A DNA stretch of 64,000 nucleotides from Candidatus Bathyarchaeota archaeon (GTDB taxonomy: Archaea > Thermoproteota > Bathyarchaeia > Bathyarchaeales > Bathycorpusculaceae). Under the pieces are notes generated by a model. That model made no database searches. It saw only the letters and a program-made list of their open reading frames with translations, and had not been told where the DNA came from. Both the position numbers and the translations under genes were made by a program. Every line of letters starts with the position of its first letter. Position 1 is the first letter of the stretch. This document shows positions 146-19,009 of this stretch, piece by piece. The stretch lies in contig PLYI01000055.1 of the NCBI GenBank assembly GCA_003151735.1, positions 1 to 64,000 on the forward strand, in the 5' to 3' direction.

Positions 146-157
146 TTTGAATCAACA

Positions 158-2198: not shown

Positions 2199-2444
2199 TT
2201 ATTTTTCACTATTTTCGGATTGGCTTGCTTTACTAAAAACCTGTGCGATTAAGTTATCTCGAATGCGTTCAGTTTCCGCAGTTGTTCGCGCAGAGGCTTT
2301 CAATTTCTGGATGTGTACGATTACATGAGCGTCTATAGCTTTACTCATTGCCGTTACATCAGGCAGGATAAGGATTTCCGTTCCGCACTCACATCTGACC
2401 TTATCAATACTTCGATGAGAACGCGCAAGTCTCCTAATAGTCAT
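2199..2444 (-). CDS. Small conserved archaeal protein with a CxC motif
   Basis: An 81-residue protein. After a basic N-terminus (RRLARSHRSIDKVRC) comes a CECG motif, then EILILPDVTAMSKAIDAHVIVHIQKL, predicted helical, and a C-terminal helix ending in a charged tail. It resembles short uncharacterised proteins of uncultured archaea that share the CxCG.EIL..PD..AMSKAI..HV pattern; that resemblance is from memory and unchecked. A single Cys pair plus His residues could bind metal in a dimer. There is no partner gene nearby. Function unknown. Confidence 0.55.
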   Translation of the reverse strand: MTIRRLARSHRSIDKVRCECGTEILILPDVTAMSKAIDAHVIVHIQKLKASARTTAETERIRDNLIAQVFSKASQSENSEK

Positions 2445-2621
2445 TACCGTAATAAATCTCCTAAAGTTTTTCCAAAGTGCTGTAATAGTCGCCGATTATT
2501 AAAATATGCTGACAAGAATGAATAGTCACTCTCAAAAAACGCAATTTAGTGACAAAAAAGGTAAATTCTATATTGACGAGTAACTAAGTATAGGTAAGTA
2601 CCCCGATTGAGTTGAAACTAA

Positions 2622-3413: not shown

Positions 3414-4282
3414 CAATCAAAAATCAAAAGATAGTAGCTTACCTAGAGCTGACAAAAATTTTTAACAGCTCAAAATCCACTCTATACTATGGTTTCAGTT
3501 CATTTACAGGAAGTCTTTTGGCATCTTCATGGACCCTTCCGATACGGACGTCATTGACAACTGCATTAGCTATAACCCTTTCAACATTTGCCATATACGC
3601 ATTGAACGACATTTACGACGCGAAAATTGACGCAATTAACGACCTTGAAAGACCAATCCCTTCAGGCCGGGCAACAATGCGCGAGGCTAAATATCTGTCA
3701 ATAGTACTTTTTGTTGTCGGTGCAGCAATTGCCGCCACCGTTAACTTACAAGTTTTTCTCTTCACTGTAACGCTTTCAGTCTTAGGAATTGCTTATTCTG
3801 TACCACCGTTAAGATTCAAAGACGGCATGTTCGCAAACGTCTGCTGGGGCTCAGGAATAGCAACCACAATCCTAGGAGGAGCAAGCGTCACTTCAATCAA
3901 CACCAGTTCACTAATTGCAGCTTTCACCTTGGCTTTCCTAACAGCCGGTTGCGGTCTAACAAAAGACTTGAAGGACCTTGAAGGAGACAGAGCTATGAAC
4001 GTGCACACGCTTCCCATTATGCTTGGAGAACCGGGCGCAATAAAGGTCATGACAATTGCAGCCTTCGGAGGATTTCCACTGCTATTCTTTAGCTTTATGT
4101 TTATCAACTTCAACATAGTTGCCTTGGCCACTATAACGTTAACTATAGCATTATTCGCTTACAGTCTTCTCGTACTCTACAAGAATCCCGGATCAAAGAT
4201 TATCTATAAGAAAGCCTACAAACTACAAGCTTATGCAGGTTTCCTCATCATTGTGGCATTTATGATAAGTGCATTAACATAA
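3410..4282 (+). CDS. UbiA-family prenyltransferase (DGGGP-synthase-like)
   Basis: A 290-residue membrane enzyme with about eight transmembrane helices. The first Asp-rich motif is NDIYDAKID (N66, D67, D70, D74) and the second is KDLKDLEGD near residues 187-196; together they bind Mg-diphosphate of the prenyl donor. Archaeal members include digeranylgeranylglyceryl-phosphate synthase, which attaches the second geranylgeranyl chain in ether lipid synthesis, and the length and motifs fit. Related UbiA enzymes make quinones or prenylated hemes, so the substrate is not settled by sequence. The start (TTG at 3410) overlaps the upstream stop. A geranylgeranyl-reductase-family gene lies elsewhere at 32790. 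Confidence 0.8.
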   Translation: MTIKNQKIVAYLELTKIFNSSKSTLYYGFSSFTGSLLASSWTLPIRTSLTTALAITLSTFAIYALNDIYDAKIDAINDLERPIPSGRATMREAKYLSIVLFVVGAAIAATVNLQVFLFTVTLSVLGIAYSVPPLRFKDGMFANVCWGSGIATTILGGASVTSINTSSLIAAFTLAFLTAGCGLTKDLKDLEGDRAMNVHTLPIMLGEPGAIKVMTIAAFGGFPLLFFSFMFINFNIVALATITLTIALFAYSLLVLYKNPGSKIIYKKAYKLQAYAGFLIIVAFMISALT

Positions 4283-4437
4283 CACAATAATGCTCCATCC
4301 GTATGCTAATCTAACAAATTCGCGACTGTATGGAAAGAAAAATCACAAAAACGTTTGAAGAGACATGCAGGATTGAGTTTTCAAAAACAAATTGAAGATA
4401 ATTTTCCTTGAAAGGTCTTATACGCTTCGGAATCTCT

Positions 4438-4590
4438 CTAATTATCCGCTGAGTTCAAGCGGTTTTGTTTTTCTTCAAAACGTTTCAATCTCTCTTCAAA
4501 TCTTTTATTCCGTTCTTTCCGCTCAAGCCCGGACAAAGAACGCATTGCAAGAGCAATAAGACCCTGCTCAATTTTTCTAAATAAGTTCAT
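4438..4590 (-). CDS. Small basic helical protein, unknown
   Basis: About 50 residues from ATG at 4590: MNLFRKIEQGLIALAMRSLS, then a strongly charged RKERNKRFEERLKRFEEKQNR helix that looks like a short coiled coil. A purine-rich GGGAAAAGAG precedes this ATG. A TATA-like element at about 4640-4650 would also allow a leaderless ATG at 4623; a start at 4686 is less likely. No family is recognised. The amphipathic charged helix suggests a structural or nucleic-acid-associated peptide, but this is a guess. Confidence 0.35.
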   Translation of the reverse strand: MNLFRKIEQGLIALAMRSLSGLERKERNKRFEERLKRFEEKQNRLNSADN

Positions 4591-4762
4591 GAAATCTCTT
4601 TTCCCATTTGTTTTGTTGTGCATAGAAGACACTCTGAGATTTAAATGTTTATTGAGTCTTACGATGTTATATTTATGGTACAGCAAGTAAATACTAACGC
4701 TACAGAATCTTCAGGAAATAAAGCTTAATAATATTCTCAGGAAGAATTCGCAAATCGTATTT

Positions 4763-6334
4763 CTATTTAAAAGAATTCTTGGGATCCTCAACGACCTCAG
4801 CTTGTTCGCTGTCGATTCCTCGCCATCTAATCTTGTAGCCAAGCGCCGCCAGCACATTGGCTGAATCATCTACTCCTTCTTCTTCAATGATTCTAGCAGC
4901 TTCCTTAAGAGGCAGTTTTCCAGATTGAATTATAGCATTTTTAATCTTGCCCCTGATTTGCAGAAGCTTTACGTTGCTAACCAAAGAATCTCCTATCACG
5001 ACATAGCTGGAAGGCGGATTGCTAACTAAGAAGGCTCGTGCCGCTTCAATAGAGACACCAATCCTATCTGCGAATTCTCCAAAACCCACAACAGGTTCCG
5101 TAAATCTAAGAGGTAAATCCTCAAGAATCTTAATCTCTTTATCTTTAACTTCTTCAAAAATTTTTTCTAAATACCTCAGAATCGGAGCCAATGGAATTTT
5201 ATGCCTATAATAAATCAAGTTAAGCTGTGGGCGTTTCTCCAAAACAGAGAGTTTCTCGCATGCCAACGCCTCATTGACTAAGAGAAGAATCTTTTCCTCC
5301 ACTTGCTTTAGCTTCTCTATCTTTCGCAGAAGGTACTCCTCTGTCCAGAAACCTACAATTTCCAAATAAATTTTAACGCTGGCTTTTTCAAGGGAGAAAT
5401 CAGGAATAATCACCTGTTTCCCAGCAGACAAAGGCTCAGGTTCTCTCTTCAAAACCCAACCAGAAGTTAAAGCTTGAAACTGGGCGGCGAAATCAGCTTC
5501 TATGAAGCTATCATAAGTCAAAGCCGGCAAACAAAGTTTCTTCAGCAACGAGGAGTGTTTTTGGCTTTCAATCTCAAAATCACAGATTTCGTTTGTAAAC
5601 CTCCAAAGAACCTTCGCTTTAACAGTCCATTGGGCGTTAGCAACGATAAATGGCAGAAGCTTGGCAATGCCCACTCCATATCTCCGAGTAAGCTTGAAAA
5701 GGCTGGCAGGACCATCTATTTTAACCCACAATCCATTGTCCTTGCTAACTTCATAGATCAACCCGAACCTCTTCATTGCATGAAAGAGGTCTTGCCAGTT
5801 GCCAGAAGCCGTGAAACTAAGCTCTGTGGCATCAAAAAGCAACGTCTGAGTCAAACTCAAGTTATACTCACCCAGCAACTCCGACGCTGAAGGCGCCAAA
5901 AACTTTTCAAGAACTAATTCACTATCCAAATCCGAGTAAAAGATCCCCTCAACCTCCTCTACCGAAAGAGTCATTTTTGAAGCCACACTTTCCATGATTC
6001 TTTGTCTATTAACAGAAGTCGTGGGCAGACCGAATTGTTCCGTGGCTTGAAATATTTTTCTCCTCAAATCAACTGGGTTAACTTTGCCATGGCAGACAAA
6101 AGTGCTTTTTCGATCAAGTAACAAAGACAAAGCCCTGACAAAACGGTACTCATAACCTTTTTCTTCAAGCTCAACGACCAAGGCTTTTAGAACTTTCTTC
6201 TTTTCCCCAACATGATTCTGGTACACTTCGATTAGAAAATTCGCCGCCTCATCATTAATCGTGGAGGGCTTGGCAAAGCGTGGAAGAACCTCCCCTTTCC
6301 TCTTCCGCACCAAAAGCAAATCACCTGGAAGCAC
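4763..6334 (-). CDS. bax1: Bax1, XPB-associated nuclease (DUF790)
   Basis: A 523-residue DUF790/Bax1 protein. The N-terminus MLPGDLLLVRKRKGEVLPRF is the family's signature opening. A PD-(D/E)XK-type nuclease core is visible around residues 308-335 (IPDFSLEKA, then YLEIVGFWTEEYLL). In archaea Bax1 binds XPB helicase, stimulates it and incises DNA at bubbles and forks, so the pair is thought to act in nucleotide-excision-type repair or transcription-coupled DNA opening. GTG at 6334 directly abuts the TAA of the XPB gene, so both are on one transcript and presumably made in equal amounts. Function comes from characterised Sulfolobales and Archaeoglobus homologues. Confidence 0.88.
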   Translation of the reverse strand: MLPGDLLLVRKRKGEVLPRFAKPSTINDEAANFLIEVYQNHVGEKKKVLKALVVELEEKGYEYRFVRALSLLLDRKSTFVCHGKVNPVDLRRKIFQATEQFGLPTTSVNRQRIMESVASKMTLSVEEVEGIFYSDLDSELVLEKFLAPSASELLGEYNLSLTQTLLFDATELSFTASGNWQDLFHAMKRFGLIYEVSKDNGLWVKIDGPASLFKLTRRYGVGIAKLLPFIVANAQWTVKAKVLWRFTNEICDFEIESQKHSSLLKKLCLPALTYDSFIEADFAAQFQALTSGWVLKREPEPLSAGKQVIIPDFSLEKASVKIYLEIVGFWTEEYLLRKIEKLKQVEEKILLLVNEALACEKLSVLEKRPQLNLIYYRHKIPLAPILRYLEKIFEEVKDKEIKILEDLPLRFTEPVVGFGEFADRIGVSIEAARAFLVSNPPSSYVVIGDSLVSNVKLLQIRGKIKNAIIQSGKLPLKEAARIIEEEGVDDSANVLAALGYKIRWRGIDSEQAEVVEDPKNSFK

Positions 6335-7684
6335 TTAAGCTACACTTCCAATTTTTTGGTGACGCCTACGACTCGTCCCAACTTCCATGGTTTCTTTGGA
6401 AATAATCTCGATTAGGCGAGCTAATTTGCCTTCCTTCTTCCTGAGCAATCGTCCGAGTCTTTGGACATATTCTCTGTTACTTCCCGTGCCACCCAAAACT
6501 AAACCTACTGAAGCATCAGGCACATCCACACCCTCATCCAAAACCTGAGAGGTAACAACAACGGGGTATTTACCGCTTCCAAAGTTTGCCAGTATTTCTC
6601 GACGCTCTTCCCTAGGAGTCTGATACGTTATCGCCGGAACCAAGAAACGCAGACTAATCCTGTAAACCAGATCGTTGTGGAGAGTGAAAATCAAAATTTT
6701 CTCTTTTTTATAGGTTTCAAGCAGTTGGGCAAGTACACTTATTTTAGCTTCCGAGTTCACGGCTACCTTTACAGCTCGATTTCTTGCCAAGAGTGCTTTA
6801 CGCGCTTTTGGGTCTCTGCCTGTACTGATTATGAATTTTTGGAAGTCAGCGGCATTTCTCAAAGTAATTCTTCTTTGCTGAAGAAAGCGTCTAAAAATAT
6901 TCATTTGAGAGTCGTAGCTTTGCTTCTCTTTAAGCGTTAGTTCAACTAATATTTTCTCGTATGTATAGGGTGACAAGTGTTCTTCTGAGAGTTCTTCGAC
7001 GCTAACTGAATAGACTGGGTCGCCGACGAGTTGCGGAAGCAAAAAGTGCCTTTGATCGCTTCTTTCGTAAGTGGCTGTTAAGCCCATGCGGTATGGTGCA
7101 AGGTACATTTCGGCTATCTGCATGTAGCCTGTAGAAGCTAAATGATGAACCTCATCGAAGACCATTAGCATGAACTTGTTGCCAAGATGTTCTGCATGTA
7201 TGTAAGCAGAATCATAAGTTGTAACAGTAACCATGCGCAGATTGTTTTCGCCTCCGCCTACAACCCCCGCTTCCAGGCTGAGGCAGTCTTTTATGCGTTT
7301 TCTCCATTGATCGATAAGGTCCAAAGTGGGAACCACAATCAACGTCTGAACTTTCAATTTTTCAATTGCTTTTAGCGCAATGAAAGTTTTTCCAGCAGCG
7401 GTAGGCAACACAAGAACACCCCTGTTGCGTGCCCTACACCAATTGTCCAAAGCCTGGTTCTGATAATCCCTAAGCGCAATATTACTTCTAAGTTGTTCCA
7501 GAGGAGGGAGGACGGGAGCTAAATCTTCAACTTGAAGTTTGCTTTCAGCCAAGTACTCTAAAACATCTCGGTAATGGTATGCCTTAATTCTGTAGCAGCC
7601 TACTCTTGGGTCCCATTTTCCATATGGAGTTCCCACTTGTCCTTTCAAAAGAAGTGTGCCTTTATCGTAGCACAAACGAAGCAT
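6335..7684 (-). CDS. xpb: XPB-type superfamily 2 DNA helicase
   Basis: A 449-residue 3'-5' helicase. A damage-recognition-like N-terminal region (1-65) precedes RecA domain 1 with the Q-region LRDYQNQAL, Walker A LPTAAGKT (K99), Walker B DEVH (177-180) and the TAT motif near 203-205. RecA domain 2 ends in QRLGRLLRKKEGK, typical of XPB. The RED-type segment follows TAT as YERSD. The next gene is its partner Bax1 with no spacer. A TATA-like CCTTAAAAC at 7718-7726 (read on the minus strand) is well placed. Archaeal XPB does not belong to a TFIIH complex; repair with Bax1 is the accepted role. Confidence 0.92.
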   Translation of the reverse strand: MLRLCYDKGTLLLKGQVGTPYGKWDPRVGCYRIKAYHYRDVLEYLAESKLQVEDLAPVLPPLEQLRSNIALRDYQNQALDNWCRARNRGVLVLPTAAGKTFIALKAIEKLKVQTLIVVPTLDLIDQWRKRIKDCLSLEAGVVGGGENNLRMVTVTTYDSAYIHAEHLGNKFMLMVFDEVHHLASTGYMQIAEMYLAPYRMGLTATYERSDQRHFLLPQLVGDPVYSVSVEELSEEHLSPYTYEKILVELTLKEKQSYDSQMNIFRRFLQQRRITLRNAADFQKFIISTGRDPKARKALLARNRAVKVAVNSEAKISVLAQLLETYKKEKILIFTLHNDLVYRISLRFLVPAITYQTPREERREILANFGSGKYPVVVTSQVLDEGVDVPDASVGLVLGGTGSNREYVQRLGRLLRKKEGKLARLIEIISKETMEVGTSRRRHQKIGSVA

Positions 7685-7788
7685 AACACTGAATCAATTC
7701 CAAGCCAATTAAACCTGCCTTAAAACGGTCAGCATAAAGTCAGTTAACCCTTTAGGTTCAAAAGGCTGTTGCTACCGCGTAGCTAACG

Positions 7789-7798
7789 ATTTAAATAT
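7789..7798 (+). promoter_or_regulatory. TATA-like box deciding the start of the 7829 gene
   Basis: The element GATTTAAATA predicts a transcript start near 7819-7822, downstream of the in-frame TTG at 7802. The ATG at 7829 is therefore the better start. The same 117-bp gap also holds the divergent XPB promoter. Confidence 0.45.
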
Positions 7799-7828
7799 AG
7801 ATTGAGAGTCAGATTTGATGACAAAGAA

Positions 7829-8428
7829 ATGACAACTTCCAACGAATGGTGTGTTGCAGTTTTCAAATGTAGTCCTGGCTCGGTCAAGAAGGTGCTTGTT
7901 GAAGTCTACAGGTTTACTGATAGTCTAAAAGGTGTGCGGAGTCTGCATTTCTTAATTGGAGACAGAGTTGAGGATGAGGTTGTTTTCAGTTTTAGAGTCA
8001 TGGTTGAACCCAAATTCAAAGAGATAGTTAAAAGTAAGTTAGCCTATAAACTGAGCAATTTACTGTCCGAAGGCAAGTATGCCATTGACCCAGCTGCAGG
8101 AAGCAGTCTCGAGCGATATGTTGCTTGGCAGCCTGAAAAGAGAATTGCCAATCATGGACGAACAAAGTTTAACCAATTCATTGATCTATTAAAAACTATG
8201 AGCGCTATCATTATTCAGTTGATTGAGGATGACTACTTTGCTTCAAACGAACGGGTTGAATTAACCCACGTTGTGTCTTGGATGCTAGGATGCACAGAAT
8301 ATGGGCTGCTTCGCACCTCCGGAATGGAAGTAGGGTACTACGACCGCTTGGATGACAAGTATTGTTCGTATTTGAACCAGGTTTTCCCAAAATCAAGCGA
8401 TGACAAGAAAACACAAAATACCACTTGA
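7829..8428 (+). CDS. Unrecognised 199-residue cytoplasmic protein
   Basis: No family is recognised. The protein is soluble, with an alternating beta-rich N-terminal part (WCVAVFKCSPGSVKKVLVEVYR, LHFLIGDRVEDEVVFSFRVM) and a helical second half that includes FIDLLKTMSAIIIQLIEDDYF and HVVSWMLGCTEYGLL. The ends are polar and there is no signal peptide or membrane helix. The segment ERYVAWQPEKRI superficially recalls scaffold domains of peptide-modifying enzymes, but too weakly to name. The start is ATG 7829, chosen from the promoter. It is divergent from the XPB-Bax1 pair and has no close downstream partner. Confidence 0.6.
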   Translation: MTTSNEWCVAVFKCSPGSVKKVLVEVYRFTDSLKGVRSLHFLIGDRVEDEVVFSFRVMVEPKFKEIVKSKLAYKLSNLLSEGKYAIDPAAGSSLERYVAWQPEKRIANHGRTKFNQFIDLLKTMSAIIIQLIEDDYFASNERVELTHVVSWMLGCTEYGLLRTSGMEVGYYDRLDDKYCSYLNQVFPKSSDDKKTQNTT

Positions 8429-8593
8429 GTCTTTTGGGCGGAACCAGGAACAAGACCCAATTTGCCATCTCAAACAAGCAGAACACTCATGCTTCTCCAA
8501 CCTTGCTTAAACATTTCCTATTAAAGACGCCTCAGAAAATGCTATCAAATTAAAAGAATTGCCTAACTCAATGATCACTTTCCGACCAGGAAC

Positions 8594-8830
8594 TTAAAAG
8601 AGCGTGTAAATCATCAAATAATCATTACCGGAGCCTATTCCTAATTTATGGCTCTTAACATAATCTTCCAATTCATCGAAACATAATCCCTTAGCTAAAG
8701 CTGCTTCAGCCAGAACCACGTAGCCTTCTGTTTCAGTATCACAAACACCCCACTCAACAAACCCTTTGAATACTTTTGGACGACAAGTGGGAAATTTCTT
8801 TGCGAACTTTATAGCATCAGAAAAATCCAT
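8594..8830 (-). CDS. Small hypothetical protein
   Basis: A 78-residue protein beginning MDFSDAIKFAKKFPTCRPKVF and continuing with a mixed alpha/beta pattern (GFVEWGVCDTETEGYVVLAEAALAKG, then a FDELEDYVKSHKL helix). Composition is protein-like. A minus-strand TATA-like TTTAAGTA at 8870-8877 puts the transcript start near 8848, which fits the ATG at 8830 with a short leader. No family is recognised and it stands alone. Confidence 0.5.
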   Translation of the reverse strand: MDFSDAIKFAKKFPTCRPKVFKGFVEWGVCDTETEGYVVLAEAALAKGLCFDELEDYVKSHKLGIGSGNDYLMIYTLF

Positions 8831-9247
8831 GCAAATTAACCCAACTACAGAATATTTGGTTGTATTAAATACTTAAACAATTGTGATTACAAACAGTAAC
8901 AATAAAGATGTTATTAACCCAAAACAATTGTTCTTTAATTGAATTCCTTTTAATCACTTCACTGTTTGGCAAAATAGAGAAGACGTTGTAGTTTAGCAAA
9001 GAAAAACAGTTGAGCAAAAGCGGAATAGAACTTGATAAGCCCCCTTTTCCAATTAGACAAGCAAGAGCTCAGAAAGATTATAAAGCCTTATTACCTAAAC
9101 GGTAATACAGAAAACAATTAGAGAACTTTGCCAACCCTGCAAAGAATTTTGATACTTAAACTTCACCCAAAATGATTATGCTGTTATCACTTTCGTGGGA
9201 TAGATTTACTGCATGTCAAATTAGTTAAGATGTTTTGACCGGTTAAT
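8831..9247. other. Intergenic AT-rich stretch
   Basis: About 420 bp without a convincing gene. Its left end holds the promoter of the 8594-8830 gene, and the motif AACAATTG recurs at about 8876 and 8923. No RNA gene or mobile-element signal was recognised in the rest. Confidence 0.4.
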
Positions 9248-9484
9248 TTAGCGCCTCATAGCTTTAGAGCACACTCGATTTCGAGGATTAGTTTTATAGC
9301 CTAATTTGCACCTAAAATCTTTGAAGTGGCTGCAATCTGTGCAAAAAACCGGAATTTGATACATAGTAACTGATTTTGCGTTTACTAAGGAATGCCCCAA
9401 GTTGTTTTTCCTCAAAAATGATTGTACCTGTTGAGGTTTATTGCTTATGAAGGAGTAATCTGAATTAAAAATATTGCACCACAA
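9248..9484 (-). CDS. Small Cys-rich putative metal-binding protein
   Basis: The C-terminal 38 residues carry a C-x2-C-x6-C-x12-C pattern (CTDCSHFKDFRC, then NPRNRVCSKA). This spacing, with a Pro before the last Cys, recurs in tiny archaeal and bacterial zinc or Fe-S proteins. The upstream 40 residues of the open frame look less constrained, so translation may begin at the internal ATG at 9364. No clear ribosome binding site helps to choose. Function unknown; the metal site is an inference from cysteine spacing. Confidence 0.4.
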   Translation of the reverse strand: MWCNIFNSDYSFISNKPQQVQSFLRKNNLGHSLVNAKSVTMYQIPVFCTDCSHFKDFRCKLGYKTNPRNRVCSKAMRR

Positions 9485-9606
9485 GAAAATAGACTAAGGT
9501 TTTGTTTAGCTTTATTTTTTCTGAAATCCAATTTGGTTCTGCTCTAAAGGCTGTGAAACGGTTAAGCGTTCCCACTAAGCTGCTTTTAATTCATCGCCAG
9601 TTTTTA

Positions 9607-9942
9607 CTAGTAGGCGCCAACTGTAGTTATGATTGTTTCGAAGCTAAAATCGGTAATATCAATAATCGTGGGATGCACAGTTAGTGTTAATTCTATAGCA
9701 ATAACTTCATTTGTGCTAAGGACTTGACCAGTGTAGTTCCAATTTAAAGACATGTAATTCGAAGCTGCAGATGGAGTCCAGTTTGAAGCCTCCAACCGCA
9801 GCGAAACAGCCGAACTGTATTCATTTCTAACATAAACCGTCAAATTACTGCTTGACCCTACTTCTATAACCCCCCAATTAAGCGAAATAGTTCTGTTAGT
9901 ACAAGCCTCATCCCAGTAAATTCCAGCGCCTATGCCCTTCAC
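9607..9942 (-). CDS. Secreted beta-sandwich protein with disrupted signal peptide
   Basis: The frame from GTG 9942 encodes 111 residues with extracellular beta-sandwich character: WDEACTNRTISLNWGVIEVG, SNLTVYVRNEYSSAVSLRL and IELTLTVHPTI, with several N-glycosylation-like NxS/T sites. The same frame stays open upstream to about 10050 and encodes a classic signal sequence (RRKTIFAAICILIVIALIAS), yet no ATG, GTG or TTG lies there in frame. An out-of-frame ATG at 10050-10052 sits just after a GGAAGG motif. The gene is therefore either frameshifted at its 5' end or uses an unusual start. It resembles short exported archaeal proteins of unknown function. Confidence 0.5.
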   Translation of the reverse strand: MKGIGAGIYWDEACTNRTISLNWGVIEVGSSSNLTVYVRNEYSSAVSLRLEASNWTPSAASNYMSLNWNYTGQVLSTNEVIAIELTLTVHPTIIDITDFSFETIITTVGAY

Positions 9943-10328
9943 GGAATCTGCATAGGCAACACGGTTAGCTGAACTAAAATCTTCTATGGATGCAATGAGA
10001 GCTATTACAATTAAAATGCATATTGCAGCGAATATTGTTTTTCTTCTAACATCCTTCCCGTTGTGATGTGGAGCGGCACTCTTAGGTTAACTAATTGTTT
10101 ATTGATCATGTTCAGCGGTTTAAGTTCTTCCCAAAACATTCTAAAACCCCAATATAGTGTCGTAATATATTGTATATACCCTTGAACGATAAATAATGAT
10201 GTGACTGTTATCTTGCAGTCACAAAATAGCAACAGGGTTAGAAACTTGGTTTCAGAAACTTAGAGTTAATGAATCGGGGTCAAGATTGTTAAGTAAGCTC
10301 GGTAAAATTTCGTTTTTGGTCACTTCAT

Positions 10329-10340
10329 GTTTTTATAGTT
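10329..10340 (+). promoter_or_regulatory. TATA-like box of the SNF2-zinc finger-Mrr operon
   Basis: The element GTTTTTATAG predicts a transcript start near 10360. That leaves a leader of about 70 nt, unusually long next to the leaderless genes elsewhere in the window. Confidence 0.4.
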
Positions 10341-10387
10341 AGATGGTAAGTAAACCGCGATTCTTTTGACTGTCAACATCCAAGCCA

Positions 10388-10408
10388 AATGCCGCGAGTG
10401 CCGGCATT
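10388..10408 (+). promoter_or_regulatory. Leader hairpin before the SNF2 gene
   Basis: A perfect inverted repeat, AATGCCG and CGGCATT, with a 7-nt loop. It lies 12 nt upstream of the AGGGG ribosome binding site. It could be an RNA hairpin that tunes translation or a DNA operator; it is not followed by a T tract, so it is not an obvious terminator. Confidence 0.45.
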
Positions 10409-10432
10409 CCTATTCAGTAAAGGGGAATTCTA

Positions 10433-12361
10433 ATGGCAGTTGACGAGCAGACGCCTAAGAGCGAGAAACCGCTGAAAAAAATCACCGAAAAATCCGCGCC
10501 CTATACAAAAAAGCCAGCTACAACTGTGAAGTCGCCTGAAAAAACGTTATCTTGTGAATTTGAAGAAGAAACGGCAACAGGTGAAAAAGACAAACATAGG
10601 TATTCCCTTAGCTTTTCAGACCCATATAGTATAAAAAAACAAATTGAAGCAAAGAAATTTTCACTCTTTCAAGAATTTCAGCTTAACCTCGAAGCTCTAC
10701 AAATAAAGCACACGGGCAAAATCGACAGACTAATCTCCTTGGACGCCATACGAACAAAATTGATCCCTTATAATTTTCAGATGCAGACTGCGCTTCAAGT
10801 CATAAACGAAATGAATGGAAATGCTATTCTTGCTGATGAGGTGGGTCTTGGCAAAACAATCGAAGCCGGCCTCATAATGAAAGAGTTGCTCCTAAGAGAG
10901 GAAATTAATTCAATTTTGATTGTTTGTCCCAAGAGCCTTTTATCGCAGTGGAAAACCGAAATGGCTGAAAAATTCGGAGAGGCTTTTTTAGTAGCTAATA
11001 ACCCAAGGGAACATGCGAATCTTGAGACCGATGATAGAATAATATGCTCACATAACCTTTTAGCCAGAAAATACTATCAGCTTGCAAGTCGAACCTGGGA
11101 CCTAATTGTTGTAGATGAAGCCCATGGATTTAGAAATACACATAGCAAAGGCAGGGTTTGCCTAGCAAATCTAAGAAAAAATCATTTATTGTTACTTACT
11201 GCCACACCCTTATGCAATAAACTTACTGATTTGTACAGTATTATAGATTTGATTCAACCAGGGCTTCTTGATAGTGAGCGAGCTTTTATTTCCCGATTTG
11301 CTGAAGACGCTAAAAGCCGAGTTGTAAGGTCAGAAGAAGTAGATTATTTAAGGCAAAGTCTTCGGGATGTTATGTGTCGGACTCGAAGAGAACAATCGGG
11401 CATTCCATTTACAAAGCGATGCGTTGAGTCTAGAACGCTTGAAGCAAATAAGAGCGAACGTGAATTTATTGATCAAGCAACCGAATACCTGCGAGATATG
11501 AGCAAAAACCATTTCAAGACAATAGAAGCTTTAATGGCGGAGAATCCAACTAGAAGAATCAGTGAATCACAAAGTAAAGCGATTTTAGTGTTTCAAGCGA
11601 TTGCTCTTCAGCAATCTTTCTCAAGTTCACCTTTTGCATCTGTTGAATCGTTAAAGAGAAGACAAGAGCGGTTCCCTTTTGAGGCTGAAGTTACAAGTAG
11701 ATTAATTGAAATGGCAAAACAAGTTAAAAGCTCAAAAACGGAGTTGCTAAGAAACGTTCTAAACGAGATTCCCAATGAACAAGCAATAATATTTTGCCTA
11801 CGAAAGATCACAACTCACAAACTCAAAGAAATGCTGGACATAGAATTCGGAAAAGCAGCGGCCTATTTAGGCGATATGAGCCAAACAGAAAGAGACCAAG
11901 TTATTGAAAGTTTCAAAAAAGGCGAAACGAAATATCTTGTCGCCACCGACGCTGCAGCTGAAGGCCTGAACCTTCAGAATTGCTGCATCATGTTCAATTA
12001 TGATTTGCATTGGAATCCCATGAAAATTGAACAGCGGATAGGTCGAATACACAGGTACAAACAAGACCGAGATGTTACAGTCTTCAACTTAAGCGTAAAA
12101 GACACCATAGATGACTATGTGCTTCACATCCTCTACCAAAAAATAGACTTATTTACAATGACAATCGGCAAAATGGAAACAGTACTTGCGGAATTAAAAG
12201 AAGGATCGCAGGATATTCAAAAAACAATTGTTGAAATTCTGCTTAGAAGTAACTCGCGTTTGGACATAAAAAAAGAACTTGAAAAACTAGCAGATGACCT
12301 GAATGTTTCGAGGAAAAATCAGGAATTATCCGAAAAATTCACACAAGGGGTTATTGATTGA
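10433..12361 (+). CDS. SNF2/RapA-type ATP-dependent helicase-translocase
   Basis: A 642-residue SF2 ATPase. A polar, Lys/Thr-rich N-terminal tail (1-60) precedes Walker A ADEVGLGKT (K141), Walker B DEAH (228-231), the LLTATP motif and a second RecA domain ending in EQRIGRIHRYKQ near residue 530. The pattern is that of the HepA/RapA branch, whose members translocate on DNA to remodel protein-DNA complexes and occur in several defence systems. The frame ends soon after the helicase core, without the C-terminal module usual in about 900-1000-residue relatives; that module may be the next gene. The stop overlaps the next TTG start. Confidence 0.85.
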   Translation: MAVDEQTPKSEKPLKKITEKSAPYTKKPATTVKSPEKTLSCEFEEETATGEKDKHRYSLSFSDPYSIKKQIEAKKFSLFQEFQLNLEALQIKHTGKIDRLISLDAIRTKLIPYNFQMQTALQVINEMNGNAILADEVGLGKTIEAGLIMKELLLREEINSILIVCPKSLLSQWKTEMAEKFGEAFLVANNPREHANLETDDRIICSHNLLARKYYQLASRTWDLIVVDEAHGFRNTHSKGRVCLANLRKNHLLLLTATPLCNKLTDLYSIIDLIQPGLLDSERAFISRFAEDAKSRVVRSEEVDYLRQSLRDVMCRTRREQSGIPFTKRCVESRTLEANKSEREFIDQATEYLRDMSKNHFKTIEALMAENPTRRISESQSKAILVFQAIALQQSFSSSPFASVESLKRRQERFPFEAEVTSRLIEMAKQVKSSKTELLRNVLNEIPNEQAIIFCLRKITTHKLKEMLDIEFGKAAAYLGDMSQTERDQVIESFKKGETKYLVATDAAAEGLNLQNCCIMFNYDLHWNPMKIEQRIGRIHRYKQDRDVTVFNLSVKDTIDDYVLHILYQKIDLFTMTIGKMETVLAELKEGSQDIQKTIVEILLRSNSRLDIKKELEKLADDLNVSRKNQELSEKFTQGVID

Positions 12362-13734
12362 ACACAAAATATCCCGACACGAAAATTCATCATTTTGTTA
12401 AAGCTTATGTCAAATCCAAAGGTGGCGAGTTAACTGAACAATCAGATGAAGTCTTCTCTGTGAAATATCCAAACGAATCAAGCCCCAAAGAGTACGCCTA
12501 CCAGCCTGCTTTGTCCCGTGAGAGAAAAATACCTCTTATTACACCAGGGAGTCCAGCTTTCCAACAAATACTGAAAGAATCCTTAGAAAACGGCGTTCTA
12601 TGCCAAATTTTACTTAACCCGAAAGGTGAAATTGACACGCTACTAAAAAAGTACTTTAAAGATTTACCCTTTTCTTGTGAAGATTGCGACAAGGTAACAA
12701 GTGGAGATGAAGTGCTTAGTGCCTGCGTAAAATCGCCACCGTGTTATCATCAAATAAATAATGGAAAAATTGTCTCAGTAAAAGTTATCAAAAAAGAGCC
12801 TGTTAGATACTTCCTATTTTATTTTTCTGCAACATTCCAGAACAAACTTAGACCGAGAAACGAAGAAACAATCACATTACTGATAGGCGAGGAAGACAAT
12901 TTTGTTAGCGCTGGGGAGTTTAGTGAAGATAATTTCCTGACTAATGATGCGCTAGAGATTCAAGATTTTAAGGCCAAGCTCCAAGTTGCGGTCTTTGATA
13001 AGCTGAAAAAAGTTGCAGACGAAAAGCTAGAGTCTATCATTAAGGAAAAGCTGGTTCTTTTTGATTTAACGCTTGCCAAAGAGAAAAAATCTAAACTTAG
13101 AAGCTTCGACAAGAGACTTAGAAGGGAGCGCCGTGAAAAGGTCATATCGAGAAAACATGATTTTGACCTACCTCAATGGCGAGCCAACTACGAGGAGCTT
13201 CTGAAAAGAGAAGAAGAATCATTCATAACCAACATAGCAGTAAAATTCATCAACTTACTTGTAATTAACACAAACAAGATTCGATTCGAAATTAACCTTG
13301 ATAATAAATCAACCATACGCTCCTCCACCATCTTGGGCGTTGATCACGCTTCAGAAGTTACTTGCCCCATCTGCCGAAAACCTTTCTCTGAGGGTTATGC
13401 AACTCAAGATTCCCTCTACGTCTGCAAAAGCTGCATCAGACAATCCGTAGACACAGCTAAAATTTACTCAAAAAAAGCAGCTTTATCGTTAGATGAAACG
13501 CTGAATGAGTACTTTGAACATGACTCAGGCTTTGTGTGCGCAGTTTGCGGAAAAAGGCACAGTCGGTTGCTGGAATTCAAATGTAGTCATGACAATTCAA
13601 GCGTATGCATCCATCATTACGGACTTTGCGATGTATGCGGAAAAATTTTCTCAAAACTTAACCTCACATACACTGAAGAATTCAAGTGGAAATTATGTCC
13701 CGTGCACGCAAAACGTGAATTAAGGGAGCGTTAA
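12358..13734 (+). CDS. Zinc-finger protein, probable detached C-terminal partner of the SNF2 helicase
   Basis: A 458-residue protein translationally coupled to the helicase (TTG 12358 overlaps its TGA). Residues 1-100 (FVKAYVKSKGGEL, then LITPGSPAFQQILKESL) resemble, from memory, the region that follows the helicase core in single-chain RapA-like proteins. A highly charged coiled-coil segment spans about 205-290. The C-terminus has several putative zinc sites: C336/C339 with C356/C359, C394/C397 with C409/C417, and C424/C427 with C447. An N-terminal CEDC (107-110) may add another. No catalytic motif is seen. It probably provides DNA or protein recognition for the helicase and the following nuclease. 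Confidence 0.65.
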   Translation: MNTKYPDTKIHHFVKAYVKSKGGELTEQSDEVFSVKYPNESSPKEYAYQPALSRERKIPLITPGSPAFQQILKESLENGVLCQILLNPKGEIDTLLKKYFKDLPFSCEDCDKVTSGDEVLSACVKSPPCYHQINNGKIVSVKVIKKEPVRYFLFYFSATFQNKLRPRNEETITLLIGEEDNFVSAGEFSEDNFLTNDALEIQDFKAKLQVAVFDKLKKVADEKLESIIKEKLVLFDLTLAKEKKSKLRSFDKRLRRERREKVISRKHDFDLPQWRANYEELLKREEESFITNIAVKFINLLVINTNKIRFEINLDNKSTIRSSTILGVDHASEVTCPICRKPFSEGYATQDSLYVCKSCIRQSVDTAKIYSKKAALSLDETLNEYFEHDSGFVCAVCGKRHSRLLEFKCSHDNSSVCIHHYGLCDVCGKIFSKLNLTYTEEFKWKLCPVHAKRELRER

Positions 13735-13735
13735 G

Positions 13736-14665
13736 ATGCATCATTTGAAGTTTAACGGCGTCTTGCAAGAAATTATTGAGCGGTACCCAAATATCGATAT
13801 TGTAGAGTTTCTACAAGACAAACTTCAGATTTCTATGGATAGTGCAGAGGAATTAGCTACCAGAATAGAAAATTACTACCTAAAAGATATCAGTAAAACA
13901 AAGCCAAATTTAGAAAAAATAATTTTGGAAAAGCCAAATAAATCTGAGCTTCCTCCGAAAGCAGTTGTTTATTCAGTTGACTGTCTTTCGGAAAAGGAAT
14001 TTGAACGTTTTACACAATGGTTGCTTGAAGAAATAGGCTATGAAATCCATCCAGAAAAGTATTCAGCTGATTCGGGAGTTGACTTGGTGGCAACGAAGGA
14101 TGGCGAGAAAATCGCGATTCAAGTCAGATGGTACCCGAAAAATAGAAAGGTATCGAATTCAATCATTTTGAAATCCCAAGAAACAAAGCCCACCTTCGGG
14201 TGCAACAGATCAATTGTCGCAGCAAACGCATATTTTACTCAACAAGCCACGGTTGACGCTCAGAAGTTAAGCGTCGAGCTTTGGGACAGAGACACCCTGG
14301 CAGCAAAGATTACTAAGGTAAGGAAAAAGGCTGAACAAGAAGAGCACTCTTGTTTTCCACCGTTCAAGGAATCACTTCTGCAAAGTCTACTTAGGCTCGA
14401 GGAAACTAAGGATTTCATGATTGAGCCTAAAGCAGATGGAAAATACGATTTGCATTTGCCCGGGGTGAAATTTCCTTTGCTGACTTTTCATGCTCACGGT
14501 GATGACGTTATCAGATGTGTTTTTAGAATTAAATATAATGAACCTGTTGGAGAATTTAACGGTGAACCATTAATCAGCGTTGACCGCAACAACGACAGGT
14601 TTGGTCCTGACGGCGCAAACGCTTATGCATTAATAATTAAGTATCTAGAACAGTTTGTGGAATAA
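13736..14665 (+). CDS. Mrr-type restriction endonuclease domain protein
   Basis: A 309-residue protein starting one base after the previous stop, behind a GGAGCG ribosome binding site. Residues 85-190 form a PD-(D/E)XK Mrr_cat fold: FERFTQWLLEEIGYEI, then SGVDLVA (D116), IAIQVRWYP (Q129, R131) and the typical ending FTQQATVDAQKLSVELWDRDTL. In Mrr enzymes the third motif is usually QxK; here it is QVR, so catalysis may be altered. The N-terminal 80 residues are helical and may bind DNA; the last 100 are beta-rich and unassigned. Mrr proteins cut modified or foreign DNA. It overlaps nothing downstream and converges on the giant helicase gene 12 bp away. Confidence 0.75.
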   Translation: MHHLKFNGVLQEIIERYPNIDIVEFLQDKLQISMDSAEELATRIENYYLKDISKTKPNLEKIILEKPNKSELPPKAVVYSVDCLSEKEFERFTQWLLEEIGYEIHPEKYSADSGVDLVATKDGEKIAIQVRWYPKNRKVSNSIILKSQETKPTFGCNRSIVAANAYFTQQATVDAQKLSVELWDRDTLAAKITKVRKKAEQEEHSCFPPFKESLLQSLLRLEETKDFMIEPKADGKYDLHLPGVKFPLLTFHAHGDDVIRCVFRIKYNEPVGEFNGEPLISVDRNNDRFGPDGANAYALIIKYLEQFVE

Positions 14666-14677
14666 GTTTATGGCTGC

Positions 14678-17600
14678 TTACTTGGGCTTGTTTTCAGATT
14701 TAACGTAGACTTCAACCTTAACTGGCAAAGCATCCTTGCCGAGAAACTCTGACAGGTTTCCTGTCCACTGTGCTTTTGAGTCAGCCGTAAATCCGACCGT
14801 CTGTGAAATCCCACGCCATAGCAGTGCCTTGTCGTAGTCTTTGGCGTCCTGTGGCATGAACTCAAAAATCGAGCGGCTCGCAATGATAACTATCTTTTTC
14901 TTCATGCGCGAAATGGCTACGTTAATTCGGTTCAGGTTGAGCAGGAAGTCGCTTTCGCTGCGGACGTAGTCGGGGTCGCTGACGGTGGATGAGATTATGA
15001 TGAAGTCTGCTTCACCTCCTTGATACCGCTCTACCGTGTCGATCCTGGCGTTTTCGCAGCCTTCGGAGAGCATGTTCTTTAGCAGGCCTTTCTGGGCGTT
15101 ATGTGGTGTAATCACGCCTATGCCCTCAGATTTGACGTTACGAACCAGGGCTTCCACAATCGAAGCCTCAACAAGGTTTGACTGGAAACTTTCAGCCTCA
15201 TCGTGAACAATCAACACAAAAACGTTCTCAGGCTCCAAAACAACGCCTAAACCATCCGTCTTAGGATGCGAAGCCGCCAACGTCTTTTTCTGGTCCGAGC
15301 GAAAATCAATCTTATCCTTCTCATAAACCCATTCCCGCAAAAACTCCGCCACAACCGAGTGGCACCTGTGGCTTTCACACAATCGCTCAGCAGGAATATC
15401 TGCGGGATGTTTGCAACTGATCCGTTCAATGCCAAGGTCTTCTTGGCGCAGTAACCGCAGGAAATCCATGGCTGAGAGGAAGGATGCCATTTCTTCGAGT
15501 GTTCGGCGGTCTTCCTTTTCCCAGTTGTGCGCTTGAATTGGAGGCAACTGACGATGGTCCCCCGCCACCAGAATCTGGCTGCTCTTGGATAGGAATGATC
15601 CTGAAAGAATCAGCTCGGGCAAACGCATCATACTCGCCTCGTCAACCACAAGCAAGTCAAAGAAGCCTTCGCCCCAGGGCGGCTCGGAACCACCGATTTT
15701 CTTCATTAACCCATACAAGCTTGGAGGGGTCAGACATAAAATCAAAGGATCTGAGCCAGAGGCGTTAGGAGTTAACGTTGACTGATTCATCAAGCAATCA
15801 GTTAGTTCCTGAACTGTTTCCTCATCCTCGTTGTAATTGACGTATTTGACCCCATCAATAAGCGCAGCCGATGAAACCGAACTGCTCAGCACTCGGTAAA
15901 TGTTTAGGTCTTTTAGGTCGTTACCGCCTTCTCTGCAGTATTCTTGCCAACAGCGAGCAAGCTTAGTTACGAACTCATGGATTGCCTTGTGAGTTGGAGC
16001 AACCATAAGCACCCTGCATCTGCCATTGGCTCGGTGTGCAGCGACGTGAGCTAAAACCGCCAACTGCAAAGTCTCAGTCTTCCCCGTTCCAGGTGGACCC
16101 TGCAACATAACAATCTGCTCTTTCCCAAAAACCCGCTCGATGAAACATTGTTGCTCAGCCTTTGGAGGAAACCGTCTGCCCTCGACCCAGCGCAAAAACG
16201 AAGCCGCAGCATCCCTTGGCAAAGCAGCATGCGAAGAAGCCTCTGATTTGCCCGCTAAGAAATCCGCTAACAAACAGTAGAGCACATTGTTGGCTGCGTA
16301 GTCAAGGCATTTGGCAGCCCTGTCAGAAATAATGTCGTCGGCTAACTCGTCGAGGATGTAGATTCGTCCAACTTCAAAGAGCTGCATGTACTTGCTTTTT
16401 GCCTTCTCAGGGTCAGTTGTTGGGAGGTTGTGCCAGGCGCTGTACTTTCTGCGTTTGCCGCTTGGCCAACTAACTACGTTAATGGATATCTCGCCCTTTC
16501 GAACATCCACTTTATCAACGATTGCGCGGGCTGATTTCGCAACTTCTGAAGGCGAGCGTTTCTGGGCTTCTTCAAACTGCGCCTGCTCATTTCGCCTTAG
16601 CTCAGTTACAACCATCCAATCGCCCGAACTTGAACCATCCGCACCCTTAACTCTGCAAGCATTAGCCACGCAATCAGCTTTCGGCAAACCAATGCCCTCA
16701 TAGACCAACTTACCGCGAACCACAAAGTCATTCTCGGATTCAGCGACGACGGTGCACTCAAAAATCAGCGACCTACCTGAAGCTACCCGCTGGTAAGGGA
16801 GCAAAGCATAGTGCTGATACATTTCTTGACGCTTGGAGAAATATTCCAAATCCAAAAATTCTCTGCAGCCACGCTCCAAAGTGGCGGTTCCCAACGAAAA
16901 TTTGGCAATTGTTGGGACCGCAATCGGTTTCTTACCCAATCGCCTGTTACGAATCGTGAGTGACCGCTCAATATGCTCCAGAGCCATGCAAAGCTTCAGA
17001 CCCATGAGTTCAAGTTCTTCATTAGTGATCCGCCTTGTCTTTGTCACGTAATCGCACCATTTGTGTTTCTCCAACAAAACCTTAGATGGATAAGTATCCA
17101 AACGATTCTTGGCTGCCCACAAGTACTCGATGGGTATTTGGTTGCCAAACCGAGCCCGCGCAGGATAATATCCGTCCTTTAGGCCATGTGAATCTCCAAG
17201 AAAATGGATTGTTCCATCTGGGTTTCTGTGATAAGGAAGAGAATAGTTGAATAGTCCATCGCGGAAAACTAAACGTAAATCAACAGATGATCCGTCTTTG
17301 CGCTTTGCTGACCAAGCTTTGTTTTCGAAAAAACTTGATTGCTCAAGAATTGGCAAAAGCCCAGAGCTATGAAACTTTAGCGCTTTCCTATGGAGTACTT
17401 CGTCTTGAATTATTGAGAACATAGGTTGGTCGATGGCTTGTCTTAAGCCCAGAAGGTCCCTTATTGCCATGGCACTCATCAAGGTGGGCTGGCGCCGGAC
17501 TGCTTTCATGAGATTGTCTCGTTCTCCTCGACTAAAGAAGTAAAGGTGGATTGGAACTTCGTCGGGGCTGCCTACTTCGTTAGCGACTTTTGTTATGGCG

Positions 17601-19009
17601 ACGGTGAGGTTTTGGAAGAAAGTTTCCAGCAGCTTCTTTTCTTCATCCAAACATTCCAGTCGGTCATCGGGAAGACTGGCGATAACATGTGATACACCCA
17701 AAGGATCGCCTCTAAATCGGGTACAATCCACCCGAGCACTAATCATCGAAATAACGTCTAACATATAGTCGCGTTCAACAAAAAGGTAAACGCGGACCAT
17801 GCTGTCGGGGCTAAACAGAAGCGCTGAATCCATGCCGTTTGAAGGAGCATCTTCAGGGAGCCCGCCGTAGCCTGTCCCAGTTAACCAAGGCATCCACTTG
17901 CTTTTGCTCGCAAAGGGGCTGTTGGGTCGAATGCCGCCTAACATATACTGGGCACGTTGAACCAGCCAATCCAATTTGGCGCCTACAACTCGGTCAGTGG
18001 CTAACAAGTGTACCTTTTCAGTGTCTTTGGCTGGGATGCTCGTGAAATCGTAGGGACGCAAGTTGCTGGATTCCATCACAACCTTTAGTTTTGCTAAATC
18101 CTCTAACCGTTTAACCCCGTAATGCCCAAGTGCCCTCTGTTCGCCCCTGCTTAAATTAAGCAACGCAATACTCTCATTTTCAACAGAGCAAACTATGCAA
18201 TACTCGTTGAATCCGCAGTTGTCGCATCTTGAGCAAAGCTGGTACTCAACCTCTGGCAAAGGAGTTTTGTGAATCCGATTTAACTCGCCGTTTTCAGCAA
18301 GTAGACGCTCAACATCCATAATTAGGGGACTAAGCTTGAATTTGGGAAGAGTTTCAGGAGTGATGTTTTCCAAATTCGTCTCTCTGTTAATTACTCCGCC
18401 TTCAAGATTAATTTTCGATGATAGGTCACTTAATTCTTTTAAGAGTAGTAACACATAGATAGCTACTTGGATTCGGTGAGCAGTCTGCTCTAGCCAAGAG
18501 GATTTGAGCTCGAAAATTCTGACCTTTACTTTTCCGCCTTTGGAGGGCCAAATGGCAATCAAATCAGCGATGCCCTTGACTTTCCAAGCTCCTATTCTAC
18601 CTTTCATCGGAACCTGATAGAGTAGAACAGGCTTACCATCAACCATTTCTTTGGAAGAAATCGTTTCCTCGATGACTTCACGCAAATTATTGAAGGAGGC
18701 TTCCTCGTTTTCAGTATACTTGGTAAAATCTTGGTAGTTGGCTGCTTTTTCTTTGAGTTCTGATACTTTTTTCTCCTCGAGCGTTTTTCCTACGCCGTAA
18801 AGTAGCGGGCTGATGGGCTTGAATATTGGCCACTTGCGGTTTTCCGCTTCCTCATCGTCTTCGAGTCTTAGTTTGAAGAATCGGGGGCAGCAGTTGAAGC
18901 GGATGTACTCTGCTATTCCTGAGGCAGTTAAGGAATCCTTGCTTCGCTTCTTTTTGTGTGAATGTTCTAAGTTTAGGTCGTCATTGCTCAACTGTTTCGC
19001 TTGCCTCAC
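14678..19009 (-). CDS. Giant RecB-like nuclease / SF1 helicase fusion (Dna2/TM0106-like)
   Basis: A 1443-residue protein. The N-terminus is a RecB/Cas4-type nuclease with D149 (GIADLIA), E167 and K169 (FELKSS) and Q181-x3-Y185. A cysteine set C259, C262, C265, C271, C274, with C40/C41, could hold a 4Fe-4S cluster as in Cas4, AddB and Dna2. A long middle region (about 290-930) is not recognised in detail. The C-terminus is an SF1B helicase: GPPGTGKT near residue 970, VVDEAS near 1120, a GDHRQLPP motif, then VERYQGGEAD and NVAISRMKK. Such proteins process DNA ends or unwind and degrade DNA. The start is GTG 19009; the gene converges with the Mrr gene. Its base composition looks richer in G+C than the SNF2 operon. 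Confidence 0.85.
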   Translation of the reverse strand: MRQAKQLSNDDLNLEHSHKKKRSKDSLTASGIAEYIRFNCCPRFFKLRLEDDEEAENRKWPIFKPISPLLYGVGKTLEEKKVSELKEKAANYQDFTKYTENEEASFNNLREVIEETISSKEMVDGKPVLLYQVPMKGRIGAWKVKGIADLIAIWPSKGGKVKVRIFELKSSWLEQTAHRIQVAIYVLLLLKELSDLSSKINLEGGVINRETNLENITPETLPKFKLSPLIMDVERLLAENGELNRIHKTPLPEVEYQLCSRCDNCGFNEYCIVCSVENESIALLNLSRGEQRALGHYGVKRLEDLAKLKVVMESSNLRPYDFTSIPAKDTEKVHLLATDRVVGAKLDWLVQRAQYMLGGIRPNSPFASKSKWMPWLTGTGYGGLPEDAPSNGMDSALLFSPDSMVRVYLFVERDYMLDVISMISARVDCTRFRGDPLGVSHVIASLPDDRLECLDEEKKLLETFFQNLTVAITKVANEVGSPDEVPIHLYFFSRGERDNLMKAVRRQPTLMSAMAIRDLLGLRQAIDQPMFSIIQDEVLHRKALKFHSSGLLPILEQSSFFENKAWSAKRKDGSSVDLRLVFRDGLFNYSLPYHRNPDGTIHFLGDSHGLKDGYYPARARFGNQIPIEYLWAAKNRLDTYPSKVLLEKHKWCDYVTKTRRITNEELELMGLKLCMALEHIERSLTIRNRRLGKKPIAVPTIAKFSLGTATLERGCREFLDLEYFSKRQEMYQHYALLPYQRVASGRSLIFECTVVAESENDFVVRGKLVYEGIGLPKADCVANACRVKGADGSSSGDWMVVTELRRNEQAQFEEAQKRSPSEVAKSARAIVDKVDVRKGEISINVVSWPSGKRRKYSAWHNLPTTDPEKAKSKYMQLFEVGRIYILDELADDIISDRAAKCLDYAANNVLYCLLADFLAGKSEASSHAALPRDAAASFLRWVEGRRFPPKAEQQCFIERVFGKEQIVMLQGPPGTGKTETLQLAVLAHVAAHRANGRCRVLMVAPTHKAIHEFVTKLARCWQEYCREGGNDLKDLNIYRVLSSSVSSAALIDGVKYVNYNEDEETVQELTDCLMNQSTLTPNASGSDPLILCLTPPSLYGLMKKIGGSEPPWGEGFFDLLVVDEASMMRLPELILSGSFLSKSSQILVAGDHRQLPPIQAHNWEKEDRRTLEEMASFLSAMDFLRLLRQEDLGIERISCKHPADIPAERLCESHRCHSVVAEFLREWVYEKDKIDFRSDQKKTLAASHPKTDGLGVVLEPENVFVLIVHDEAESFQSNLVEASIVEALVRNVKSEGIGVITPHNAQKGLLKNMLSEGCENARIDTVERYQGGEADFIIISSTVSDPDYVRSESDFLLNLNRINVAISRMKKKIVIIASRSIFEFMPQDAKDYDKALLWRGISQTVGFTADSKAQWTGNLSEFLGKDALPVKVEVYVKSENKPK

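What the first reader, a model, noticed from the sequence alone, without database searches (positions are those of the whole stretch)
10433..14665. Three-gene SNF2 helicase / zinc-finger / Mrr nuclease operon
A RapA-type translocase, a multi-zinc-finger protein and an Mrr-type nuclease are coupled (4-nt overlap, then a 1-bp gap) behind one promoter with a leader hairpin. Helicase-plus-nuclease sets of this kind act in restriction-like defence, but this combination does not match a system I can name; DISARM, for instance, needs DrmA/DrmB and a methylase, which are absent. The zinc-finger protein may be the detached C-terminal half of the helicase, making a split enzyme that hands substrate to the nuclease.
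Basis: partly seen in the sequence, partly recalled or inferred. Interest (0 to 1): 0.72.

Follow-up and report, generated by a model that had tools for sequence, protein, structure and literature searches.

The report
Split RapA-type remodeller with dead nuclease
Three neighbouring archaeal genes encode a DNA-walking motor cut into two proteins plus a nuclease relative that has lost its cutting residues; the set is kept together across a whole genus, and related sets, some with an intact nuclease, occur in other archaea, so it looks like an unnamed family of molecular machines probably derived from antiviral defence.

Summary
The three genes are real and exactly placed. H (SNF2 ATPase), Z (zinc protein) and M (Mrr fold) occur together in the same order in 26 of 32 Bathycorpusculum genomes and in one mixed bin, in varying surroundings; one further genome keeps only a collapsed relict. 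The same split recurs: H-Z-M trios in another thermoproteotal family and on three haloarchaeal plasmids, and H plus a short Z-like partner in BREX-related islands, cyanobacteria and a proteobacterium. 'Restriction nuclease' is not supported here: none of 27 M proteins keeps the D...Q/E-x-K triad, although M is under purifying selection; two relatives elsewhere keep it. Best reading: a split RapA-type DNA translocase whose defence-type nuclease became a non-cutting subunit. No named family in Pfam, NCBIfam or PADLOC fits. Function is inferred, not shown. The leader hairpin is no better than chance.

The parts
10330..10337 (+). TATA box (TTTTTATA), likely single promoter of the operon
   Evidence: The same TTTTTATA lies upstream of H in most of the 27 loci, read by eye
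10388..10408 (+).
   Evidence: Present in the sequence, but the leader folds no better than shuffles and no matching repeat was found in relatives; probably not functional
10433..12361 (+). H: SNF2/RapA-type ATPase core, 642 aa, ends about where the helicase unit ends
   Evidence: Pfam SNF2-rel_dom 3e-35 and Helicase_C 2e-27; DEVGLGKT, DEAH and QRIGR motifs conserved in 27 sequences; nearest PDB sequences: a Snf2/Rad54-family helicase (1z63) and RapA
12358..13734 (+). Z: detached C-terminal half of a RapA-type helicase plus zinc clusters, 458 aa, TTG start inside the overlap [T/C]TGA conserved in 27 of 27 loci
   Evidence: AlphaFold model, Foldseek against PDB: top five hits all RapA; match to the C-terminal half of an unsplit SNF2 protein; junction
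12358..12657 (+). Z residues 1-100: alpha-beta-beta-beta-alpha-alpha-beta unit, by order equivalent to RapA's first alpha+beta (degenerate REase) domain
   Evidence: Secondary structure of the model; RapA architecture in PMC12839542; inference
12670..13332 (+). Z residues 105-325: antiparallel sheet with long helices inserted before the last strand, as in RapA's C-terminal alpha+beta domain; also holds a conserved C/H cluster (C107, C110, C123, C129, H131)
   Evidence: Model, conserved residues, domain description in PMC12839542
13363..13707 (+). Z residues 336-450: zinc clusters (C336, C339, C356, C359, C394, C397, C409, C417, H420, C424, C427, C447, H450), partly spaced by 15 residues
   Evidence: Invariant in the 24-sequence alignment; 15-residue CxxC period in the longer haloarchaeal and G414 relatives
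13736..14665 (+). M: Mrr-fold protein, catalytically degenerate, 309 aa
   Evidence: Mrr_cat 5e-18; catalytic lysine is R in 20 and K in 1 of 27, full triad in none; dN/dS 0.13-0.22
14357..14662 (+). M residues 208-309: C-terminal domain with much of the invariant sequence of the protein, absent from the 138- and 158-aa M proteins of Halocatena and G414
   Evidence: Alignment A2; model at pLDDT about 90; short relatives

Best explanation
H and Z together are one RapA-type SNF2 DNA translocase encoded by two translationally coupled genes: H is the ATP-driven motor, Z the missing C-terminal half (degenerate-REase-like unit, then the RapA-specific alpha+beta domain with long helices), extended by zinc clusters that probably bind nucleic acid or a partner. 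M is a former Mrr nuclease that no longer cuts and serves as a binding or sensing subunit. The complex most likely moves along double-stranded DNA and displaces or stalls bound complexes (RNA polymerase, or the machinery of invading DNA) without cleaving. It descends from a helicase-nuclease type of defence module; in this genus it has become nearly fixed. Shown here: conserved three-gene set, RapA-half identity of Z by fold and by an unsplit relative, conserved ATPase motifs, loss of the nuclease triad, purifying selection on all three. Inferred: physical complex, translocation, target, defence ancestry and present role.
For: Set conserved in 26 of 32 genomes, all or none, with a collapsed relict in G083. 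Fold of Z: only RapA above background. Unsplit L142: Z profile probability 97%, E 1.4e-10, score 82 against at most 28 for reversed tails. H homologue next to a Z homologue in G311 and G414. Trios on haloarchaeal plasmids. Pairs inside DUF1156/DUF499 islands, in cyanobacteria and Rhodovastum. Split forms group with RapA and L142, apart from the DISARM/BREX-related full-length helicases (support 99/100). M: no intact triad in 27, yet dN/dS 0.13-0.22. H, Z and M distances correlate with one another after controlling for RpoA1 (0.56-0.61).
Against: The Z model is of medium confidence (pLDDT 75, pTM 0.50); the Foldseek match is flexible (TM 0.2, rmsd 13) and its coordinates on RapA are not given. 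Direct sequence comparison of Z with E. coli RapA or with the other full-length helicases finds nothing significant. Only one unsplit relative gave a strong match. For the short partners in haloarchaeal islands and cyanobacteria the match to Z is weak (E 3e-5 to 0.2). No structure of a complex and no experiment. Defence ancestry rests on the contexts of relatives, not on this locus.
Confidence: 0.6

Rival explanations
1. An active restriction-like defence system: H-Z scans DNA and M cuts foreign DNA, with an unusual active site in which arginine replaces lysine.
For: Relatives in Halocatena and G414 have the intact D...QAK motif; M's best PADLOC match is the Mrr part of Zorya ZorD; related two-gene pairs lie in BREX-related islands.
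Against: None of 27 M proteins in this group keeps the full triad; the lysine position is R, V, Q, L, I or K. No DUF1156 methylase in 29 of 32 genomes, so no self-protection of that type. Near fixation, and shared synteny within subclades, are unusual for a defence gene.
Confidence: 0.15
2. A housekeeping RapA-like factor that recycles or dislodges stalled RNA polymerase (or similar complexes) in this genus, with no defence role now.
For: The closest solved fold of Z is RapA; the set is present in 26 of 32 genomes with low dN/dS for H (0.03-0.09); subclades of the RpoA1 tree are mostly recovered in the trio tree.
Against: H lacks RapA's N-terminal TUDOR-like pair (by length and profile start). 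The cassette is absent from three genomes of 95-97% completeness (G084, G085, G098) and sits in different surroundings in different subclades. Z and M diverge much faster than RpoA1 (mean identity 56% and 48% against 91%).
Confidence: 0.2
3. Chance grouping of three unrelated genes.
For: Neighbouring genes outside the trio differ between subclades.
Against: Same order in all 26 genomes of the genus that have the set, conserved stop-start overlap in 27 of 27 loci, and occurrence of related sets in other archaea.
Confidence: 0.01

Closest known systems
E. coli RapA (RNA-polymerase-associated Swi2/Snf2 ATPase)
   Same: SNF2 core of the same broad type; Z's predicted fold matches RapA only; alpha+beta domain with long helices before the last strand as described for RapA (PMC12839542).
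   Different: Two genes instead of one; no N-terminal TUDOR-like pair; added zinc clusters; an Mrr-fold third protein; sequence similarity of Z below detection; RNA polymerase binding untested.
BREX-related (BR) Type-1 helicase-nuclease effectors and BrxHII (PMC12839542)
   Same: The order Snf2 core, inactive REase-like unit, alpha+beta domain, then a PD-(D/E)XK domain maps onto H-Z-M; related two-gene H plus short-partner pairs occur next to DUF1156 and DUF499 genes.
   Different: Three separate proteins, no TUDOR domain, zinc clusters, degenerate nuclease, no DUF1156 methylase in the window's genome; in a different part of the helicase tree.
DISARM (DrmD helicase; split DrmA/DrmB)
   Same: DrmD is the best profile match of H (E 1e-75); a helicase split into two adjacent genes is a known theme there for DrmA/DrmB (PMC12458937).
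   Different: H scores 255 against a DrmD cut-off of 950; no DrmA, DrmB or methylase partner seen at the locus.
Zorya type I ZorD (SNF2 plus Mrr-like nuclease)
   Same: SNF2 and Mrr-like modules in one system; M's best PADLOC match is the Mrr part of ZorD.
   Different: ZorD is one protein; H scores 73 against a cut-off of 1500; no zinc RapA-like half; active site lost in M.

Membership tests
RapA (NF003426) | Score above the curated cut-off (576 bits) | tested here: not met
   H scores 172.5 bits
RapA (NF003426) | C-terminal Spacer and CTD fold | tested here: met
   Present on a separate protein, Z: fold search, model; sequence comparison with RapA itself not significant
RapA (NF003426) | Association with RNA polymerase | not testable with these tools
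   Needs a binding experiment
DISARM | DrmD-type helicase above cut-off | tested here: not met
   255 and 227 bits against cut-offs 950 and 610
DISARM | DrmA/DrmB and methylase at the locus | tested here: not met
   Genes next to the trio in the window are XPB-like and SF1 helicase genes; no flanking gene cluster is shared by all 27 loci
BREX-related (BR) system | DUF1156 methylase | tested here: not met
   None in the window's genome; 3 of 32 genomes
BREX-related (BR) system | DUF499 ATPase | tested here: not met
   None in the window's genome; 1 of 12 genomes tested
BREX-related (BR) system | Module order Snf2 core, inactive REase, alpha+beta, REase | tested here: inconclusive
   Order fits across H, Z and M by model and motif, but the REase nature of Z's N-terminus is inferred from secondary structure only
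Mrr restriction endonuclease | Mrr_cat domain | tested here: met
   PF04471 E 4.6e-18, 65.8 bits, cut-off 21
Mrr restriction endonuclease | Catalytic D...Q/E-x-K | tested here: not met
   Full triad in 0 of 27
Zorya type I | ZorD above cut-off | tested here: not met
   72.8 bits against 1500
Zorya type I | ZorA, ZorB, ZorC in the genome | not tested
   Not searched

The most novel reading that the evidence does not exclude
A previously unnamed family of split RapA-type SNF2 complexes spans archaea and some bacteria: motor (H) plus detached C-terminal half (Z), with a branch in which Z carries an extendable array of 15-residue zinc repeats (up to about 48 CxxC motifs in Haloferax) and is followed by an Mrr protein that has lost its active site at least twice; in Bathycorpusculum this defence-type module has turned into a near-fixed, non-cutting DNA remodeller.
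Probability: 0.5. Interest if true: 0.72.

Novelty: new variant of a known kind. Interest (0 to 1): 0.6.

Why it matters
Many defence helicases share the RapA layout, but how their C-terminal half and attached nuclease work is unclear. Here motor, C-terminal half and nuclease are separate genes, so each can be purified and recombined. The loss of the active site in a conserved subunit, beside relatives that keep it, makes it testable whether such nuclease folds in SNF2 systems act as sensors rather than cutters, and how a defence module becomes part of an archaeon's normal equipment. It would also give an identity to proteins now called 'hypothetical' on haloarchaeal plasmids.

Tried and rejected
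Leader hairpin as a regulatory element: folds like shuffled sequence, no Rfam match. Frameshift fusion of H and Z: in many relatives a stop lies directly before the Z start in its own frame, so coupled re-initiation is the simpler reading. Z as HypA- or RING/TRIM-related: only the zinc motifs match, weakly. Direct profile match of Z to E. coli RapA: not significant. Z profile against long SNF2 helicases of the same genus: no match. Viral contigs: no relative of Z; viral fold library: nothing significant. First genome-contig scan with the single sequence found nothing; the alignment scan found 21 named loci. G129 as evidence for a second genus: its bin has two RpoA1 genes, one from the Bathycorpusculum side, so it is not counted as independent. 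A halobacterial genome survey was not possible.

Full report
Observation. The window holds H (10433-12361, 642 aa), Z (12358-13734, 458 aa) and M (13736-14665, 309 aa) on the + strand, with a 4-nt TTGA overlap and a 1-nt gap as stated. H carries SNF2-rel_dom and Helicase_C, M carries Mrr_cat, and Z has no Pfam family above threshold. No specific NCBIfam family is reached at its cut-off, and PADLOC gives only cross-matches to SNF2 and Mrr parts of several systems. A TATA box at 10330-10337 recurs upstream in most relatives, by eye. The leader folds no better than shuffles.

Distribution in the lineage. Z was found in 27 of 257 genomes of the class: 26 of the 32 genomes of the window's own genus and one bin assigned to another genus. 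H and M sit next to it in all of these; in G087 Z is broken by a frame change. Named records show the genus to include Candidatus Bathycorpusculum. Neighbours outside the trio are shared within subclades and differ between them. Of the six genomes without it, G102 (60% complete) and G088 (82%) may simply be incomplete; G083 keeps a collapsed relict in which the start of H runs into the end of M. The other bin, G129, holds two RpoA1 genes, one on the Bathycorpusculum side of the tree and one with its nominal genus, so it is probably mixed. The trio tree recovers the main RpoA1 subclades with a few conflicts: mostly inherited, with loss and some exchange.

Z is the missing half of H. The AlphaFold model of Z (pLDDT 75) finds E. 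coli RapA as its only significant PDB neighbour: five RapA entries rank first (the best four at E 5e-7 to 1e-5, 4s20 at 2e-3) and the next hit is at 0.23. The paper on BREX diversity describes RapA and BrxHII as Snf2 core, degenerate REase, then an alpha+beta domain with two long helices inserted before the last strand, unique to these helicases (PMC12839542). Z's secondary structure follows that order (helix and strands in 1-100; sheet, helices 210-288, last long strand 292-314). H ends about where the helicase unit ends. Sequence alone does not link Z to RapA, but a profile of Z and its relatives matches the last 300 residues of an unsplit 999-aa SNF2 protein of genome G311 (L142) with 97% probability, E 1.4e-10, score 82, against at most 28 for reversed tails.

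The pair and the trio recur elsewhere. In G414 (another family of the phylum) an H homologue (E 3e-114) is followed by a 585-aa protein with 15 CxxC motifs and an Mrr protein; in G311 an H homologue (E 5e-113) is followed by a Z homologue without M. Plasmids of Halocatena, Haloferax lucentense and Halorhabdus carry SNF2, zinc-rich protein and restriction endonuclease in the same order; the zinc proteins match the Z profile at E 1e-15 to 2e-39, part of that score coming from the repeated zinc motifs. Shorter partners of about 350-400 aa follow SNF2 genes in other haloarchaea (some beside DUF1156 or DUF499 genes), in cyanobacteria and in Rhodovastum; their match to Z is weak (E 3e-5 to 0.2, Rhodovastum none). 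In the helicase tree all split forms lie with L142, L158, two bacterial full-length proteins and RapA, apart from the BREX-related and other full-length helicases; RapA itself is on a long branch.

M does not look like a cutter here. E. coli Mrr and three of four plasmid homologues have D...QxK; in the 27 M proteins the lysine is R in 20, K in 1 and V, Q, L or I in 6, and none has the full triad (counts by reading the alignment). Halocatena and G414 have it intact; Haloferax and Halorhabdus appear to have lost it (by reading). M is nevertheless under purifying selection (dN/dS 0.13-0.22; Z 0.08-0.15; H 0.03-0.09). No DUF1156 methylase is found in the window's genome and only three of 32 genomes have one.

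Zinc clusters. In the haloarchaeal trio and G414 relatives CxxC motifs follow each other every 15 residues, up to 48 in Haloferax; in the window's Z the residues C394, C409 and C424 keep this spacing. This suggests an extendable binding array of which Bathycorpusculum keeps a short piece; what it binds is unknown.

Translation. In all 27 loci the end of H and the start of Z share [T/C]TGA with a non-ATG start, and in many a stop lies directly upstream in the Z frame. This fits coupled re-initiation rather than a frameshift.

Reading. Shown: a conserved three-gene set; Z as detached RapA-type C-terminal half (fold, unsplit relative, recurrence); conserved ATPase motifs; lost nuclease triad with selection on M. 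Inferred: complex formation, translocation, non-cutting role, defence ancestry.

Noticed in passing
L055 1140-1690 (minus): Relict of the whole trio in G083: an early part of H runs directly into the last part of M, as after an internal deletion.
   Followed up: yes
L030 about 8610-9945 (G087): Z is split into two frames while H and M are intact; real decay or a sequence error.
   Followed up: no
G129 (L102, L128): The bin contains two RpoA1 genes from two lineages, so it is probably mixed; genus-level statements based on it are unsafe.
   Followed up: yes
L198 about 6870-10611; L199 6815-10102: Haloferax and Halorhabdus zinc proteins of about 1246 and 1095 aa with CxxC motifs every 15 residues (48 and 38 of them); no Pfam family matches the Halorhabdus one.
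   Followed up: partly
window 14678-19009 (minus): 1443-aa SF1 helicase with a weak Cas4-like match in its N-terminal part; nearest PADLOC profile MkoA.
   Followed up: no
window 4763-7684 (minus): XPB-like helicase (6335-7684) next to a probable Bax1 nuclease gene (4763-6334; Bax1 from memory, not tested).
   Followed up: no
window 1-14665: The first 14.7 kb is AT-richer (39% GC) than the rest of the window (46%).
   Followed up: no
L178 8974-10269 (minus): DUF2130 gene directly before the G414 trio.
   Followed up: no
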